Virus record (IMG/VR): IMGVR_UViG_3300031772_000182
Coordinates: 1 to 31,411 of that record
Reading direction: 5' to 3' (one strand)
Source of the DNA: a virus
Length of the DNA stretch: 31,411 nucleotides
Shown: one piece after another, positions 8,055 through 26,646 of the stretch
Layout: each line of letters begins with the position of its first letter
Position numbering within the stretch: position 1 is the stretch's first letter
Made by a program: the position numbers and the translations under genes
The notes under the pieces: model-generated
Seen by the model: only the letters and a program-made list of their open reading frames with translations
Databases searched by the model: none
What the model was told of the DNA's origin: nothing

Positions 8055-8845
8055 TCTTTCATCACCTTAGATGGTTTGCCTAATTCGCGTCCTGTGAACG
8101 TGCTTGAACGTTCAAGAATTATCATTGCGCCTCTTTCATACCATAATTTGTAAACGTGTAAAGGCAGAGATTCAGGAGGTTTGTTGATAAGCCACGTTGC
8201 TGCTAGTAAATGTCGAGCAAGTTTTTTATCACTGACTCGATCCACGAACTCTTGTTTGCCTTTGGTCATTGCATCATACAACGGATAACTTGGCATTCTG
8301 TCAAGAATATGCTGCATCAGATTTGGAGCAAAATTCCATGTTTTGAAATCATGTATTGCAACTCTATCTACTTCATCGACTAAACCACCGTAAACCATCT
8401 TGCTTTTGTAAGGCCATAGGACTATCATGCGACTTATGCTGAAACTTCCTTCGGAAGCATAGATTTCTTGAAATGGAACTGTGTCAGCTAATGTTGGGTT
8501 GTTCCTTAGACTGGAACTTCCCCATCTGATGTCTTTTTGCAACTTGTGAATTTCTCTTCTTTTCGAGTATGAACTTGCTGGAAGTTCAACTCCTTCATCC
8601 AAATTCTCAGTGTAAATACCTTGAATGAACGCAACATTCATCATACCAAGATTAATTCGTTCATCCATCAACATGTCGGACGATGTTGGAATAGCAATGT
8701 GAATTATTTGTTTCTTTTCTGCTTGCTTTACTTCTGTAGCCTTCGGAGAAAGTGTTTTACTCTCGGCTATCTCCTTAGGTTTCTTTGAGTATTCAGCAAC
8801 AATCCTTCGCCAACCGACAAGTCGTTTATCTGCGCTAGAAGCCAT
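8051..8845 (-). CDS. Unknown 264-aa early protein
   Basis: 264 aa from the ATG at 8845, which has AAGGAG 8 bases upstream; the GTG at 8851 is too close to that site. The N-terminus is basic and Lys/Glu-rich (~1-45). An alpha/beta core follows (IIHIAIPTSSDMLMDERINLGMM, then FSISRMIVLWPYKSKMVYGG), then a helical C-terminus (LARHLLAATWLINKPPESLPLHVYKLWYERG). It overlaps the ParB-like stop by 11 bases. Being next to a ParB-like gene it could act in replication or partition, but no motif proves this. Confidence 0.7.
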   Translation of the reverse strand: MASSADKRLVGWRRIVAEYSKKPKEIAESKTLSPKATEVKQAEKKQIIHIAIPTSSDMLMDERINLGMMNVAFIQGIYTENLDEGVELPASSYSKRREIHKLQKDIRWGSSSLRNNPTLADTVPFQEIYASEGSFSISRMIVLWPYKSKMVYGGLVDEVDRVAIHDFKTWNFAPNLMQHILDRMPSYPLYDAMTKGKQEFVDRVSDKKLARHLLAATWLINKPPESLPLHVYKLWYERGAMIILERSSTFTGRELGKPSKVMKE

Positions 8846-9740
8846 GACCACAACTCCTTTTTATTTCACCGTTCCCGCAGACTGGGCATTTCAAGTCATT
8901 ATGGAAAAGTCGCAAGGCACTAGCAAGAAGCAACTTTCTTCTTTCTGTATCAGCTAATCGTGTCTTTTCGTGAGGACTGACCTTACTATAGAAATCTTTT
9001 ATTTGTTTGTCAAGAGGAGGTACACCCAAATCCTTCATTAATTGGTCAGTGGCAAGGTCTGTTTTGACTTCTCGCGTGATAGCTTCAACGCTAAATCCTT
9101 CATCTCCTTCTTTCAGCTTTTCTAAAATCTGAGGAATGACTTGCTTCTGAACTTCTTTAGGTTCATCTACTAAGTCGGCTACAGGTCGAATGCCAAGCTT
9201 CATGCCTTCCAAGGCTGCTGTTTTAATTTCTTCAGGAAGCTTTGACTCCTCGATTTTTCTTGCTCTATCAAAAGTTGCTGGAGAAAGCCCTACTTCATGC
9301 GCTATCTCAGACTCAGATAGCTTCGTAGATCGTTCCGTGGAATGATCTACGGTAACAACTTTAGTTTGTCCGTGTTTGAGTCCGTGTAGCCTCTGTAATT
9401 CTGCATAACACTTCATCTTTGCTCTGTAAGAAACATCCTTTCGCGCCAAATTGTCCTTGATAACTCTCTCTTGTTGTTCAAGTTTGTCGTCACTCGGAAA
9501 AACCGTTATTGGCACTAGTTTGAGTCCTAACTCCAAAGCTATCCGTAAACGTTCATGGCCACAAAGAACAAGCTTATCCTTTGTAATTTCAAGAGGTGTT
9601 CTGATTCCATTAGCTTCGATGTCTTTTAGAAGAAGATTGAATGCGTCACCTTTCAATTCTGGAAAGAATTGTCTACTGTATTCATTTGCTTTCAACTGTT
9701 TAGGATCAAGAAATTTAATGCTCAAAACCTCCTCCATCAT
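8835..9740 (-). CDS. ParB-like protein with C-terminal zinc ribbon
   Basis: 301 aa. The N-terminal ParB/Srx-like domain includes IEANGIRTPLEI (~41-52) and GHERLRIA (61-68), which stands in for the family GxxRxxA box. A helix-turn-helix follows at ~142-163 (LSESEIAHEVGLSPATF). The C-terminus carries CPVCGNG...C (~285-297), a zinc-binding end not usual in ParB. It may bind centromere-like or origin sites for partition or replication control; alternatively it may regulate transcription or be a nuclease. Translation is coupled (ATGA) to the small gene upstream. No ParA partner is visible. Confidence 0.75.
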   Translation of the reverse strand: MMEEVLSIKFLDPKQLKANEYSRQFFPELKGDAFNLLLKDIEANGIRTPLEITKDKLVLCGHERLRIALELGLKLVPITVFPSDDKLEQQERVIKDNLARKDVSYRAKMKCYAELQRLHGLKHGQTKVVTVDHSTERSTKLSESEIAHEVGLSPATFDRARKIEESKLPEEIKTAALEGMKLGIRPVADLVDEPKEVQKQVIPQILEKLKEGDEGFSVEAITREVKTDLATDQLMKDLGVPPLDKQIKDFYSKVSPHEKTRLADTERRKLLLASALRLFHNDLKCPVCGNGEIKRSCGHGF

Positions 9741-9865
9741 GTTTTCATCCTCGCCCTTTTCTCATCTACTTCAATTTGGCATTGATGTTGCGCGTTCAAC
9801 ACGTCATCGCAGAGGCGGCGCAGTTCACGCGCTTTCTCTTTGAGATCAGAGTCTTTGTGAACCAA
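9737..9865 (-). CDS. 42-aa basic coiled-coil protein, TTG start
   Basis: 42 aa from TTG 9865. An in-frame stop lies just upstream, and GGGAGG sits 8 bases before the TTG. A single charged helix (LKEKARELRRLCDDVL) ends EKRARMKT. Its stop overlaps the ParB-like ATG (ATGA), so it may couple ParB translation to the regulator upstream. Confidence 0.55.
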   Translation of the reverse strand: MVHKDSDLKEKARELRRLCDDVLNAQHQCQIEVDEKRARMKT

Positions 9866-12385: not shown

Positions 12386-12526
12386 ATGCGACCTTTAAGA
12401 ACTCCTGAAATGGAAGAGAATTGGCGCAAATTACATTTGCTAGAACTCAAAGTTCGCATGATAAAACACATTGCGGATAATTTTGATTCTGACCCTCCTG
12501 AATTGAAAGCAGTGTGGCCGTTATGA
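12386..12526 (+). CDS. 46-aa hypothetical protein
   Basis: 46 aa. It is helical (EENWRKLHLLELKVRMIKHIADNF) and basic in the middle, ending DPPELKAVWPL. GGTGA precedes the ATG. Its stop overlaps the next ATG (ATGA). First gene of the rightward accessory transcript. No family recognised. Confidence 0.55.
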   Translation: MRPLRTPEMEENWRKLHLLELKVRMIKHIADNFDSDPPELKAVWPL

Positions 12527-12867
12527 GCAAACACACAAGAAGCGAAAAAAGCAAGTTACGTCGAGAACAGCGTATGAGTGCTAAACAGTTTATGTGGGAC
12601 AACAGTTTTCAAGATCCAATACAGGCAGAAACAGTCAACTTGGTTGACAGTCACATCATTCTTAGTTTCTTAGGGCATAAATTCGGGCAATCCGATCCGA
12701 GTGCAGTACCTTCAGCCGCATTTGCTGGATGCGTATTAAGCAACTCGCGTGGAGATGGAGATTTTCAGAAAGTGAAGTGCCCACATTCAGAGGCTTTAAA
12801 CTGTCTAGATTTCCCGAATTGTAGACGTTGTAGTGTGTTCCTCAAAAGTAAGGGGGGTGTTTGTTGA
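12523..12867 (+). CDS. Hypothetical protein with basic N-terminus and Cys-rich end
   Basis: 114 aa from the ATG at 12523, taken for its ATGA overlap with the previous stop. The N-terminal ~25 residues are strongly basic (SEKSKLRREQR). The C-terminus has a cysteine cluster (KCPHSEALNC, NCRRCSVF, GGVC) that could bind metal. It is followed directly by the membrane protein gene. No family recognised. Confidence 0.6.
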   Translation: MSKHTRSEKSKLRREQRMSAKQFMWDNSFQDPIQAETVNLVDSHIILSFLGHKFGQSDPSAVPSAAFAGCVLSNSRGDGDFQKVKCPHSEALNCLDFPNCRRCSVFLKSKGGVC

Positions 12868-13263
12868 ATGAGAAAACTAGCATGGCTCGTCATCGTCGTC
12901 TTACTCATCATAACTACACTAGCTGTAGCCTGTGCCATAGTACCCTCAATCAGTGCAACGGTCTATGACATTGGCGTGAACTACATTGGTGTAACATTCG
13001 TCAATTTAGTAACAGGTTCCATGACAGGCATGATGGCATGGGGCGCAACAGGACTAGGACCCGCAGCAGCAATATTCTTCGGTGTAGGCATAGGATTCAC
13101 CATTCTATGGCTTGTAGTTCTTCGCAAGTACATTTGGAATCCACTGCGAGGCGTGACCAAAACAATGACACCAACCCTAACTTTGCGTGGCGGACCTGAA
13201 CCAGAATTGCCTCAACTTATTGAACAATCGAAGCCAACGGAAGTACCTAAGGAGGGCAGTTGA
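12868..13263 (+). CDS. Integral membrane protein
   Basis: 131 aa. Hydrophobic segments lie at ~4-28 (LAWLVIVVLLIITTLAVACA) and ~60-87 (TGLGPAAAIFFGVGIGFTILW), with a weaker one at ~38-56. The cytoplasm-like C-terminus is Pro/Glu-rich (~105-131). It immediately precedes the GTPase gene; the stop is 2 bases before the GTPase ATG. It may recruit the GTPase to the host membrane. No family recognised. Confidence 0.65.
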   Translation: MRKLAWLVIVVLLIITTLAVACAIVPSISATVYDIGVNYIGVTFVNLVTGSMTGMMAWGATGLGPAAAIFFGVGIGFTILWLVVLRKYIWNPLRGVTKTMTPTLTLRGGPEPELPQLIEQSKPTEVPKEGS

Positions 13264-13265
13264 TA

Positions 13266-14270
13266 ATGGAAAGATTGAAAACGATAATCGCTAATAAACC
13301 GCAAGCCACTCAGGTTGAACCTTTAAGCAAAACGTTCAAGTTCAAAACCAAATTCGCTATGGTCGGCACAATAGGCAGTGGCAAAACCACAGTCAGCACC
13401 TTGCTCGTCCTAACTTCACAGACACTCAGTAGCCAACTGCCAAACTTTGCATGTCGCACACTGCCAGGAAGCACAAACATTATAGATTACGTTAGTAAAA
13501 TGCGAACAGGCCATTTTCCACCCAAAACCGATGCTGCAGGTTCAGACCGGCATGAAGACGGGTTACTTTGTCGATGGGGAAGCAAATTTGGGAACCCTAA
13601 ACAAATCAACATTCCAATCTGCGATTTGGCTGGGGAAAAACTGCAAAACATGATTAAAACAATTAACTTTCGACGTAAAAACCCGGCAAGTCAAGAATCC
13701 TACAATATGAGTTCTAGTCTGATCAACTACGTGCGTGACTGTGAAGGCTACATTCTCATTGCTCCAGCGTCTCGGGCGATGGCGTTTGATGATGGTGTGC
13801 AAATTGAAAAGGAAACTGAAGACGAAGAAAGGAGCGGTATTAGTTCAGATCCTGACGCAAACCTGTACAATTTCCTACAGGATATAGTGAGTTATAAAGA
13901 AAGCTCTAAGGGTAAACCCATCAAAGCTATCGCTGTTGTAATCACGAAATGGGATAAACTCATGCCCTACGCACAGGAAATGGGCATCGACCTCGATGAC
14001 GAAACAGGTCAAGGCGCACAAACATTCATGGAAACCTTGTTCCCACAAACCACAAGTCTACTCAAATTCGAGAAACAACGCAACCCTAATCTAGAACTCA
14101 TGTTTTTCCCAAGCTACGTTAGAATCCAGAAGGATACAGTATCAAACAAGCCTTTGAAGTGGTCTGATGGCGGCGATAAAATTCAAATGGAAGTCAACCA
14201 GCGGGTCCCTCAATACTGGGCGCAAAGTTACTTGAACCTCGTCAACTTTTTGGGAAAGTTTGCATCTTGA
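13266..14270 (+). CDS. P-loop GTPase, DO-GTPase-like
   Basis: 334 aa from the ATG at 13266, which has GGAGG about 10 bases upstream; the TTG at 13260 is too close to it. Motifs: Walker A GTIGSGKTT at 34-42, a switch-I-like FPPKT at 84-88, Walker B/G3 DLAGE at 120-124 and a G4-like TKWD at 227-230. FPPKT together with D-x-A-G-E recalls the double-GTPase (DO-GTPase) families of bacterial conflict systems, though only one G domain is seen here. Not a packaging or replication ATPase. It lies between membrane proteins and a GAP1-N-like gene, which suggests membrane-linked GTP-controlled action. Confidence 0.75.
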   Translation: MERLKTIIANKPQATQVEPLSKTFKFKTKFAMVGTIGSGKTTVSTLLVLTSQTLSSQLPNFACRTLPGSTNIIDYVSKMRTGHFPPKTDAAGSDRHEDGLLCRWGSKFGNPKQINIPICDLAGEKLQNMIKTINFRRKNPASQESYNMSSSLINYVRDCEGYILIAPASRAMAFDDGVQIEKETEDEERSGISSDPDANLYNFLQDIVSYKESSKGKPIKAIAVVITKWDKLMPYAQEMGIDLDDETGQGAQTFMETLFPQTTSLLKFEKQRNPNLELMFFPSYVRIQKDTVSNKPLKWSDGGDKIQMEVNQRVPQYWAQSYLNLVNFLGKFAS

Positions 14271-14599
14271 AATTGGAACATTTCTGGTATGGACTCACAA
14301 ATGGGGATGGGTACATTTTCAAACACAGTCCCAAAGTCTTATCCATGCTTAAACCGAAAAGTCTAGAGTATCTGCAAAAACTTCCTTCAGACCTAATACC
14401 AAAGTATAGTTGGTTGCCGGCGGAGCAGTTAGTCGCTATTTCCATGATTATCGACGCGAAAGATAATGATGGACGCAAAGGAAGGTCAAATCACACAATC
14501 CTCATTCCAATCAAACAATACATCGCGGTGAGTCATCTCGATGTTAATTGGTCTTTCACCGTTCCTAAGACGGATATTCTTGAACCTTTGGAAGTGTAA
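14267..14599 (+). CDS. Possible GTPase-associated (GAP1-N-like) protein
   Basis: 110 aa from TTG 14267, overlapping the GTPase stop (TTGA). The pattern EHFWYGLTNGDGYIFKHSP near the N-terminus, then LPAEQLVAISM and GRKGRSNHTILIPIKQYIA, resembles what I recall of N-terminal GAP1 domains found with DO-GTPases. The resemblance is from memory of the pattern, not a search. Overlap coupling to the GTPase supports a partner role. Otherwise unknown. Confidence 0.5.
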   Translation: MKLEHFWYGLTNGDGYIFKHSPKVLSMLKPKSLEYLQKLPSDLIPKYSWLPAEQLVAISMIIDAKDNDGRKGRSNHTILIPIKQYIAVSHLDVNWSFTVPKTDILEPLEV

Positions 14600-14601
14600 A
14601 C

Positions 14602-15120
14602 ATGAGTAAAAAGAAATGGTTGTTAGTAATCGTTCTAATAATCAGCGCGGGATACGCAATCTACAAGCTGAACTATTTTCCAATCTACACAAACGCAGTA
14701 AACGTCGCCTACACACAGATCCTATCTTTCATTGGAACTGACCCTAAAACCATAGGACTAACCTTAGCATCAGCCGCCGCATCAATCGTAGGAACCTACC
14801 GTCTAGTGCAAGACCGAGCAAACACTACAATCAGTCAAGTACAGGGAACCGCTGATCAAGCCATGGGCACAATGAGCAACAGTATTCAGGTCGTACAGAA
14901 CGAGAAAACCGCTTTAGAAAACAAGTTGCTCAGTCTCCAAGAAGAACAGAAGCAAACAGTAGCAGAGTTTGAAGGCTTGAAAACTGAGGTCAACCAATTC
15001 CAAACATTATTCAATCAACAGAAAAAGCAAATCACAGAGTTAACCGCTGCAAATAATGCTCTTTCACAGCAACTTACCACCTGGAAACTTAACACCTACG
15101 AAACCATAGTTGTGAAGTAA
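14602..15120 (+). CDS. Membrane-anchored coiled-coil protein
   Basis: 172 aa. A TM segment lies at ~5-22 (WLLVIVLIISAGYAIY), with a second, weaker hydrophobic stretch at ~48-66. A long coiled coil fills ~80-160 (NEKTALENKLLSLQEEQKQT and onward), Gln-rich with heptads. The shape resembles tether or spacer proteins. Third gene after the GTPase and probably part of one membrane complex. Confidence 0.65.
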   Translation: MSKKKWLLVIVLIISAGYAIYKLNYFPIYTNAVNVAYTQILSFIGTDPKTIGLTLASAAASIVGTYRLVQDRANTTISQVQGTADQAMGTMSNSIQVVQNEKTALENKLLSLQEEQKQTVAEFEGLKTEVNQFQTLFNQQKKQITELTAANNALSQQLTTWKLNTYETIVVK

Positions 15121-15121
15121 C

Positions 15122-15268
15122 ATGCTTCGGCTTTTTCCGCGTCAAGAACTCAGTTTCCGCGCACTCTTCCTCTCCGTTTTCATCGCCCTGTTCTTAGGCA
15201 TACTGATAGGGTACGCTGCACACGGCAACGTTATCCCGTTAATCAAATGGCTGTTAGGACAAGGCTAA
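15122..15268 (+). CDS. Small single-pass membrane protein
   Basis: 48 aa. A basic N-terminus (LRLFPRQELSFR) precedes one TM helix (~12-32, ALFLSVFIALFLGILIGYAA). It lies directly after the coiled-coil gene and 4 bases before the zinc-ribbon gene. Possibly a small subunit of the same membrane complex, or holin-like. Confidence 0.5.
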   Translation: MLRLFPRQELSFRALFLSVFIALFLGILIGYAAHGNVIPLIKWLLGQG

Positions 15269-15272
15269 AACT

Positions 15273-15461
15273 ATGGCTAACTGTAGTCAATGCCAGCGCG
15301 AAATCAAAATCTACGACAAAGACGAACAGAAGGGCTGGCTAATCCTACGTTGCGACTTCTGCGGCTTAAACTACCATTATAAACGTGGCTGGGGCAACAA
15401 ATGGACATTACGCAAAACATCGAAGTTGCTGTATATGAGTGAGAAAGCAGCAAAAACGTGA
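15273..15461 (+). CDS. Zinc-ribbon protein
   Basis: 62 aa. CSQC at residues 4-7 and CDFC at 27-30 form a classic rubredoxin-type ribbon, with a basic C-terminus. Last gene of the accessory module. Its stop lies inside the left arm of the inverted repeat at 15460-15529. Likely nucleic-acid or protein binding. Confidence 0.7.
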   Translation: MANCSQCQREIKIYDKDEQKGWLILRCDFCGLNYHYKRGWGNKWTLRKTSKLLYMSEKAAKT

Positions 15462-15529
15462 GACACCTCTAACATTCTCCTTCTCCTTTGCTTGAGTATC
15501 CCTCATTTTATAATGGTTGGAGGTGTCTC
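15460..15529. promoter_or_regulatory. 10-bp inverted repeat flanking a TATA box (late promoter/operator)
   Basis: GAGACACCTC (15460-15469) and GAGGTGTCTC (15520-15529) are exact inverted copies 50 bp apart. Between them lies TTTTATAAT (15506-15514), a TATA-like box; the right arm sits between it and the expected start (~15537). This suggests an operator controlling the DUF559/packaging transcript. A terminator hairpin is a weaker alternative because the loop is long. Confidence 0.5.
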
Positions 15530-15561
15530 TCCCAATTCAATTAATCTAGGATGTCTCGAAA

Positions 15562-15972
15562 ATGTCCCTTGCTGAATTATCACAAATCTGGAAACCACAA
15601 AAACATAGTCAATGGATACGCAAACAAATAAAGAAAGATCAGTTAGCAAAAGGCATGATACTTTATCCAACGCAAGGCGAAGCAAAAGCATGGACCATAC
15701 TTCAAGAAATTAACAGAATAACCCCTTACTATTTCAAACGGCAAAGAATAGTATATGGGTATATAATAGACTTCTATTGCCACCCGCTACGTTTAGGCAT
15801 AGAAATAGACGGATCCATCCACCAGAACCAGCGACTCTATGACCAATATAGAGAAGACAACCTCAAAAGAGAAGGTATAAAACTTCTACACTTCACAAAT
15901 TGGCAAGTCTTCAACCAACCTGAGATAGTTAAAAAACAAATAGTAGAAATCATGCTAAAAGGTGAAACATGA
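15562..15972 (+). CDS. DUF559-family PD-(D/E)XK endonuclease
   Basis: 136 aa. Catalytic pattern: E40 (GEAKAW), D70 (IIDFY) and E81-x-D83 (EIDGSIH), followed by DNLKREGIKLLHFTNWQVF, the conserved end of DUF559/VSR-like nucleases. It would nick or cut DNA. It is placed next to the terminase genes, where phages often carry HNH nucleases for packaging or homing. Whether it aids packaging, acts as a selfish nuclease or degrades competitors is not visible. Confidence 0.8.
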   Translation: MSLAELSQIWKPQKHSQWIRKQIKKDQLAKGMILYPTQGEAKAWTILQEINRITPYYFKRQRIVYGYIIDFYCHPLRLGIEIDGSIHQNQRLYDQYREDNLKREGIKLLHFTNWQVFNQPEIVKKQIVEIMLKGET

Positions 15973-26109: not shown

Positions 26110-26373
26110 ATGGCAGTCGTAACCACTTGGAAAAAAACGGATTTCGATGGACGCTTTAAAAAAGTCACAATGAAAATGACCTATGACAACCTTGACACGA
26201 CAGTAACCTGCGCAACCGGACTGCGCAACCTGTTTGGTTATACTGTACCTTCAGGGTCCAGCGTAAACACAAAGTACGTGACGAGAGGGACGGTTGCAGG
26301 TGGAACAGTTACTTTAACGGTGACTGATCCTGCTGCAGCTTGCTATTTGACTTTGATTGCGTGGGGGGTGTAA
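26110..26373 (+). CDS. Small head/decoration protein, paralogue 1
   Basis: 87 aa, beta-rich (KKVTMKMTYDNLDTTVTC). It is clearly similar to the next gene: both begin MAV, have a DTTVT segment, a xxTKYV strand, AGG and an IAWGx end. Probably a capsid decoration or head protein duplicated in tandem. Confidence 0.65.
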   Translation: MAVVTTWKKTDFDGRFKKVTMKMTYDNLDTTVTCATGLRNLFGYTVPSGSSVNTKYVTRGTVAGGTVTLTVTDPAAACYLTLIAWGV

Positions 26374-26376
26374 AAT

Positions 26377-26646
26377 TTGGCTGTAACTTTAACCTATCGA
26401 AAACGGAATTACAGCGGCAAATTCAAAATGTGCATCCTCAAATACGCTTATGGCAACGGCGACACTACAGTAACTGTGACTGCGGCAGTAACGAACCTGA
26501 AGCAAATCTACGGAGTCACCACTAGCCCTCCAAGTGTAGCAACAAAATATGTGAGCGCAATCGCTGTTGCAGGTGGAGCCGCAACTATAACCGTCTTGGA
26601 CCCTCTAGCAAACGCGTACCTATACGTTATTGCGTGGGGAATCTAG
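26377..26646 (+). CDS. Small head/decoration protein, paralogue 2
   Basis: 89 aa from TTG 26377, with a G-rich ribosome-binding run before it. It shares DTTVT, ATKYV, AGG and YVIAWGI with paralogue 1. The shared ends and spacing indicate tandem duplication. Confidence 0.65.
   Translation: MAVTLTYRKRNYSGKFKMCILKYAYGNGDTTVTVTAAVTNLKQIYGVTTSPPSVATKYVSAIAVAGGAATITVLDPLANAYLYVIAWGI

What the first reader, a model, noticed from the sequence alone, without database searches (positions are those of the whole stretch)
12868..15461. GTPase plus GAP1-N-like protein inside a virus membrane module
A P-loop GTPase with FPPKT, DLAGE and TKWD motifs is flanked by membrane proteins. It is coupled by a TTGA overlap to a protein whose pattern resembles GAP1-N domains of DO-GTPase conflict systems. 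A TM/coiled-coil protein, a small TM protein and a zinc ribbon complete the set. This module sits outside the virion genes under its own promoter and could serve superinfection exclusion, counter-defence or membrane remodelling. It is the best candidate for an undescribed system.
Basis: partly seen in the sequence, partly recalled or inferred. Interest (0 to 1): 0.8.

Follow-up and report, generated by a model that had tools for sequence, protein, structure and literature searches.

The report
Archaeal-virus membrane GTPase switch cassette
Tailed viruses that infect Bathyarchaeia carry a conserved, swappable set of genes for a membrane-associated GTPase switch and its dedicated partner protein, related to bacterial conflict systems but not reported in viruses in the literature I could search; what it does to the host cell is not yet known.

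Summary
12868-15461 encodes a membrane protein (TM1), a P-loop GTPase, a ~110-aa partner overlapping it by TTGA, a TM/coiled-coil protein, a 48-aa TM protein and a zinc ribbon. The TM1-GTPase-partner order recurs in relatives (14 further viral contigs, one truncated, and one Bathyarchaeia MAG), even with distant terminases. DO-GTPase1/2 are the best Pfam matches of the GTPase (to 4e-6, all shown just under cut-off), and YcjX is its best structural match. GAP1-N membership of the partner is not proven by sequence (one of 14 members, E 0.085); its confident AlphaFold model has a longin-like topology, the fold of many GTPase regulators, with an invariant Arg. GTPase and partner distances track each other (r 0.83) and not the terminase (r 0.08). 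In a close relative (75-91% DNA identity) exactly 13143-15117 is replaced by an allele with a 28%-identical GTPase. GAP1-M/C, GASH, FNIII repeats and effectors are absent. Best reading: an effector-less, virus-adapted DO-GTPase/GAP1-type membrane switch, probably host-facing (exclusion or surface remodelling), with egress the main rival. 'Own promoter' is not supported: the genes head the block that leads into the terminase genes.

The parts
12514..12867 (+). Conserved small gene upstream of the module (basic N-terminus, SDSRGxGxFQ-like tail); kept also in relatives that lack the module
   Evidence: profile hits in nearly all relatives, including L015, L017, L025
12868..13263 (+). TM1: two-helix membrane protein with about 40-residue polar, Pro/Glu-rich tail; the tail is replaced together with the GTPase in L016
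   Evidence: hydropathy, alignment A4, breakpoint at 13143
13266..14270 (+). TRAFAC-type P-loop GTPase, DO-GTPase/YcjX-like (Walker A GSGKTT, Walker B with Glu (D/E)xxGE, TKxD, invariant GxFPxxT; nearly invariant DPD)
   Evidence: Pfam; model and Foldseek; alignments
14267..14599 (+). GTPase partner, GAP1-N-like in position and size, predicted longin-like fold (beta-beta-alpha-beta-beta-beta-alpha) with invariant R70, N75, T77
   Evidence: conservation; structure; weak GAP1-N1
14602..15120 (+). TM/coiled-coil protein (one or two N-terminal helices, long C-terminal coiled coil), fastest-evolving part of the cassette
15122..15268 (+). 48-aa single-TM protein
   Evidence: read from sequence; homologues in L016 and L004; weak holin match E 0.018
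15273..15461 (+). zinc ribbon protein; outside the replaced segment (93% identical in L016)
13143..15117 (.). segment with no nucleotide similarity to the close relative L016, whose flanks are 75-91% identical: cassette replacement

Best explanation
The cassette encodes a virus-borne membrane GTPase switch. A soluble DO-GTPase/YcjX-like TRAFAC GTPase is held at the host membrane by TM1 (probably through TM1's cytoplasmic tail) and the TM/coiled-coil protein. The small partner encoded next to it, which has a longin-like fold in the position of GAP1-N, docks on the GTPase and controls its cycle, possibly with invariant Arg70 as a catalytic finger (inferred). It looks like the DO-GTPase/GAP1 core without the GAP1-M/C domains, GASH/FNIII parts and effectors, so the output is probably exerted at the membrane itself. 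Shown: conserved order, GTPase motifs, coupled divergence of GTPase and partner, uncoupling from the terminase, and replacement as a unit. Inferred: complex formation, membrane tethering, GAP/GEF activity, and a host-facing output, most likely exclusion of related viruses or surface remodelling (about 0.35 on its own). The stated confidence is for the switch-plus-partner core, not for that output.
For: Order conserved in the window, 14 further viral contigs and one MAG. GTPase: DO-GTPase1/2 as best Pfam families, YcjX top in PDB with MglA and SR-beta also matched, Walker-B Glu and TKxD invariant. Partner: pLDDT 86 and beta-beta-alpha-beta-beta-beta-alpha order; Foldseek list rich in longin proteins such as GATOR1/SEA, Lst4, C9orf72-SMCR8 and Loki roadblock-longin; R70 invariant in 15 of 15. 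NPRL2 uses an Arg on a longin loop as its finger (PMC8534245). Distances: GTPase-partner r 0.83, p<2e-4; GTPase-TM1 0.61; GTPase-TerL 0.08, p 0.31. The replacement 13143-15117 covers TM1 tail, GTPase, partner and TM/CC and nothing else. TerL relatives L015, L017 and L025 lack the module, so packaging does not require it.
Against: All DO-GTPase scores shown are under the curated cut-offs. GAP1-N1 matches only one of 14 members, not significantly, and GAP1-N2 none. The longin resemblance is weak (best E 0.009, TM 0.43-0.52) and PAS/CACHE domains appear in the same list. The GTPase model has only moderate confidence (pLDDT 76). No contact between the proteins was modelled. Position ahead of TerS/TerL would also suit a late or lysis role.
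Confidence: 0.55

Rival explanations
1. Egress/lysis module: the membrane proteins (holin-like small TM, spanin-like TM/coiled-coil) and the GTPase disrupt or remodel the archaeal membrane at the end of infection.
For: It sits at the head of the block leading into TerS/TerL. In relatives without the module the same slot holds other small membrane proteins (L015 142 aa, L025 78 aa). The small TM protein has a weak holin match (E 0.018) and the TM/CC protein a weak Rz-like match (E 0.02).
Against: Holin and Rz matches are far below cut-off and typical of any TM or coiled-coil protein. No lytic enzyme is in the cassette. I know of no lysis system built on a GTPase with a dedicated partner. L017 has no evident replacement.
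Confidence: 0.25
2. Counter-defence decoy: the virus carries a stripped DO-GTPase/GAP1 core to jam a host DO-GTPase defence system.
For: Core components present, effectors absent; cassette replacement fits an arms race.
Against: No DO-GTPase1 match in 257 Bathyarchaeia genomes and no GAP1-N1 match in 398 Thermoproteota genomes, and the viral profiles found only one locus, in G229, in 257. That absence is weak: the viral copies themselves score under the cut-off and no control genome rang. The GTPase keeps its catalytic motifs and is under purifying selection, unlike a dead decoy.
Confidence: 0.1
3. Virion or assembly factor: the proteins act at the membrane in packaging or morphogenesis.
For: Adjacent to TerS/TerL in most relatives.
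Against: Absent from L015, L017 and L025, whose TerL is 45-77% identical; present beside very distant TerLs in L034 and L050; GTPase distance uncorrelated with TerL.
Confidence: 0.1

Closest known systems
DO-GTPase/GAP1 (GTPase-centric) conflict systems, Kaur et al. 2020 (PMC7159879)
   Same: TRAFAC GTPase with Walker-B Glu; small partner gene directly downstream and co-diverging; zinc ribbon and TM proteins nearby; membrane setting
   Different: Virus-encoded; a single GTPase; partner is one ~110-125 aa domain without M/C domains in the viruses; no GASH, FNIII repeats, EAD or recognisable effector; sequence scores below cut-off
YcjX (stress GTPase of the Psp neighbourhood; PDB 6nz4, 6nz5)
   Same: Best PDB fold match of the GTPase; membrane-stress context
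   Different: 10-11% identity; no longin-like partner described there (own knowledge); cellular
Longin/roadblock regulators of small GTPases (NPRL2-NPRL3/Rag, MglB/MglA, SRX/SR-beta)
   Same: Predicted fold topology of the partner; dedicated GTPase-partner pairing; an invariant Arg near a hairpin
   Different: No sequence similarity; weak structural scores (TM at most 0.52); larger non-Ras-type GTPase
T6SS TagF (PDB 9t0n, 6iz8)
   Same: First-ranked Foldseek match of the partner (E 0.009)
   Different: TM 0.43, rmsd 7.6; unrelated context

Membership tests
DO-GTPase family | TRAFAC P-loop GTPase with Walker A, conserved Glu in Walker B, (N/T)KxD | tested here: met
   K40, G123, E124, T227, K228, D230 invariant in 14 sequences
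DO-GTPase family | Score over the curated cut-off of PF19975 or PF19993 (27 bits) | tested here: not met
   Best shown 26.7 and 26.4 bits; top family for most members. Hence filed as related, not as a member
DO-GTPase family | Structural relation to the family | tested here: inconclusive
   YcjX is top PDB hit, E 3e-6, but TM 0.37-0.46
GAP1 (GTPase-associated protein 1) | GAP1-N1 or GAP1-N2 domain by profile | tested here: inconclusive
   GAP1-N1 in one of 14 members at E 0.085; in the L003 virus record 13 bits over positions 28-94 of 101; GAP1-N2 none
GAP1 (GTPase-associated protein 1) | Gene directly downstream of a DO-GTPase and co-diverging with it | tested here: met
GAP1 (GTPase-associated protein 1) | Three-domain protein (N, M, C) | tested here: not met
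   Viral copies are about 110-125 aa; the MAG copy is longer (203+ aa, truncated by the contig end)
DO-GTPase conflict system | GASH or FNIII component, effector or EAD domain, often two GTPases | tested here: not met
   One GTPase in the 31.4-kb record; no such Pfam match in module proteins. Relatives have a single secreted Ig-like protein, not FNIII repeats
Longin-domain GTPase regulators | Longin fold | tested here: inconclusive
   Topology matches; about 14 of the top 50 PDB matches are longin/roadblock proteins (classified by me), none at E<=0.001
Longin-domain GTPase regulators | Binding to, and GAP or GEF action on, the partner GTPase | not testable with these tools
   needs biochemistry

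The most novel reading that the evidence does not exclude
A new class of virus-encoded G-protein signalling: archaeal head-tailed viruses carry a complete membrane GTPase plus longin-type regulator cassette that sets exclusion or compatibility groups and is exchanged as a unit between otherwise closely related viruses.
Probability: 0.25. Interest if true: 0.85.

Novelty: new variant of a known kind. Interest (0 to 1): 0.6.

Why it matters
The literature I could search describes DO-GTPase/GAP1 systems only in cells, as defence-like switches. A virus lineage that keeps only the switch core and swaps it as a cassette would separate the switch from its effectors and make its basic mechanism testable with two or three small proteins. 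It would also be a rare GTPase-plus-regulator pair in prokaryotic viruses and a candidate for how viruses act on Bathyarchaeia cells, which remain hard to study.

Tried and rejected
No relatives in phage, plasmid or GTDB genome contigs by close search. Weak L037 plasmid hits were noise. Could not obtain bacterial GAP1-N or DO-GTPase sequences for profile-profile comparison: seven large plasmids held no GAP1-N1, E. coli could not serve as a centre, and 398 Thermoproteota had none. PDB sequence profiles gave nothing useful. BFVD fold matches were mainly giant-virus GTPases, none full-length in a prokaryotic virus. The L003/L004 pair first looked like cassette transfer between divergent viruses; DNA comparison showed close relatives with a mosaic TerL, so it is not used. 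An early TerL entry for L036 was out of frame and was corrected. PADLOC gave only a weak mad8 match, E 0.03.

Full report
Observation. The block is conserved: profiles for TM1, GTPase and partner find them in this order in 14 viral contigs besides the window (one of them, L010, is cut off inside the GTPase) and in one Bathyarchaeia MAG, whose copy is cut by the contig end within the partner gene. The TM/coiled-coil protein follows in most. The upstream 12514-12867 gene is part of the conserved order, but it also occurs in viruses without the module (L015, L017, L025), so it is a neighbour rather than a part. The host assignment rests on a 74%-identical TerL in a Bathyarchaeota MAG (L014) and a 45% one in another (L015).

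GTPase. DO-GTPase1 is the best Pfam family for the window protein (E 5e-6, 26.4 bits against 27) and one of the two DO-GTPase families is best for most relatives, but no score shown passes the cut-off. The defining Walker-B Glu and TKxD are invariant. The AlphaFold model (pLDDT 76) matches YcjX first in the PDB, then translational GTPases, MglA and SR-beta. I therefore place it in the DO-GTPase/YcjX neighbourhood without calling it a member.

Partner. By sequence GAP1-N1 is only suggestive: one of 14 members, E 0.085, with unrelated families at the same level. In favour are its position, size and tight co-divergence with the GTPase (r 0.93 on 10 members; 0.83 on 15). The model (pLDDT 86) has the order beta-beta-alpha-beta-beta-beta-alpha, and its PDB list, though without a hit at E<=0.001, holds TagF and many longin proteins that regulate GTPases (the classification of those chains as longin is partly my own knowledge). 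R70, N75 and T77 are invariant; R70 lies at the hairpin between the last two strands. NPRL2 provides its catalytic Arg from a longin loop (PMC8534245). That is a lead, not a test.

Cassette replacement. Window and L016 share 75-91% DNA identity along most of the compared region (TerL 92%, zinc ribbon 93% in protein), yet 13143-15117 has no DNA similarity: GTPase 28-29%, partner 27%, TM/CC 22-24% identical, and TM1 is conserved only up to residue 92. GTPase distance is unrelated to TerL distance (r 0.08, p 0.31), although TerL is itself mosaic in places. TM1 distance correlates with both. So the replaceable unit is TM1 tail, GTPase, partner and TM/CC. Such replacement against a constant backbone is typical of host-facing or immunity-group genes (inference).

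Function. Viral copies lack GAP1-M/C, GASH, FNIII repeats, EADs and effectors. A secreted Ig-like protein accompanies the module in many relatives but not in the window or L016. The best mechanism is a membrane-tethered GTPase switch with a dedicated regulator. For its output I favour exclusion or surface remodelling (about 0.35) over egress (0.25), counter-defence (0.1) and assembly (0.1). The slot in module-less L015 and L025 holds other small membrane proteins, which keeps egress alive.

Novelty. The Bathyarchaeia virus and provirus papers I could search do not mention GTPases; only two papers in the library mention DO-GTPases, and the passages I read describe cellular systems. I rate this a new variant of a known kind, with GAP1 membership open.

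Noticed in passing
window 15537-15972: DUF559 endonuclease-like gene (Pfam E 2e-21) is an insertion relative to L016, whose flanks join almost directly around it.
   Followed up: partly
window 15460-15469 and 15520-15529: Inverted repeat GAGACACCTC/GAGGTGTCTC just after the zinc ribbon gene, conserved in L016; possible hairpin, terminator or regulatory site.
   Followed up: no
window 8059-9770: About 1.7 kb, including the ParB-like gene 8835-9740, has no matching DNA at the corresponding place in L016 (about 340 bases there).
   Followed up: no
window 26110-26646: Two tandem small ORFs (87 and 89 aa) look paralogous.
   Followed up: no
L002 3354-3827; L034 5445-5879; L037 4049-4474 and others: Secreted or membrane-anchored Ig-like protein next to the module in many relatives, absent from the window and L016.
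   Followed up: partly
L002 1838-1963; L049 5834-5992; L056 4531-4737: Small Cys-rich (zinc-ribbon-like) ORFs in or near the module; L049's lies directly before the GTPase, recalling the ZnR-GTPase fusions of bacterial systems.
   Followed up: no
L017 1-469 and 1379-2359: Repeat-rich ORFs (CGDSSQPTI-like repeats) in a module-less relative.
   Followed up: no
L003/L004 TerL: TerL is mosaic: the C-terminal half is about 92% identical in DNA while the N-terminal half is far more divergent in otherwise close viruses.
   Followed up: partly
L039 835-3363: In the MAG contig a P-type ATPase lies upstream of the module, so it may sit at a provirus edge or be chromosomal.
   Followed up: no
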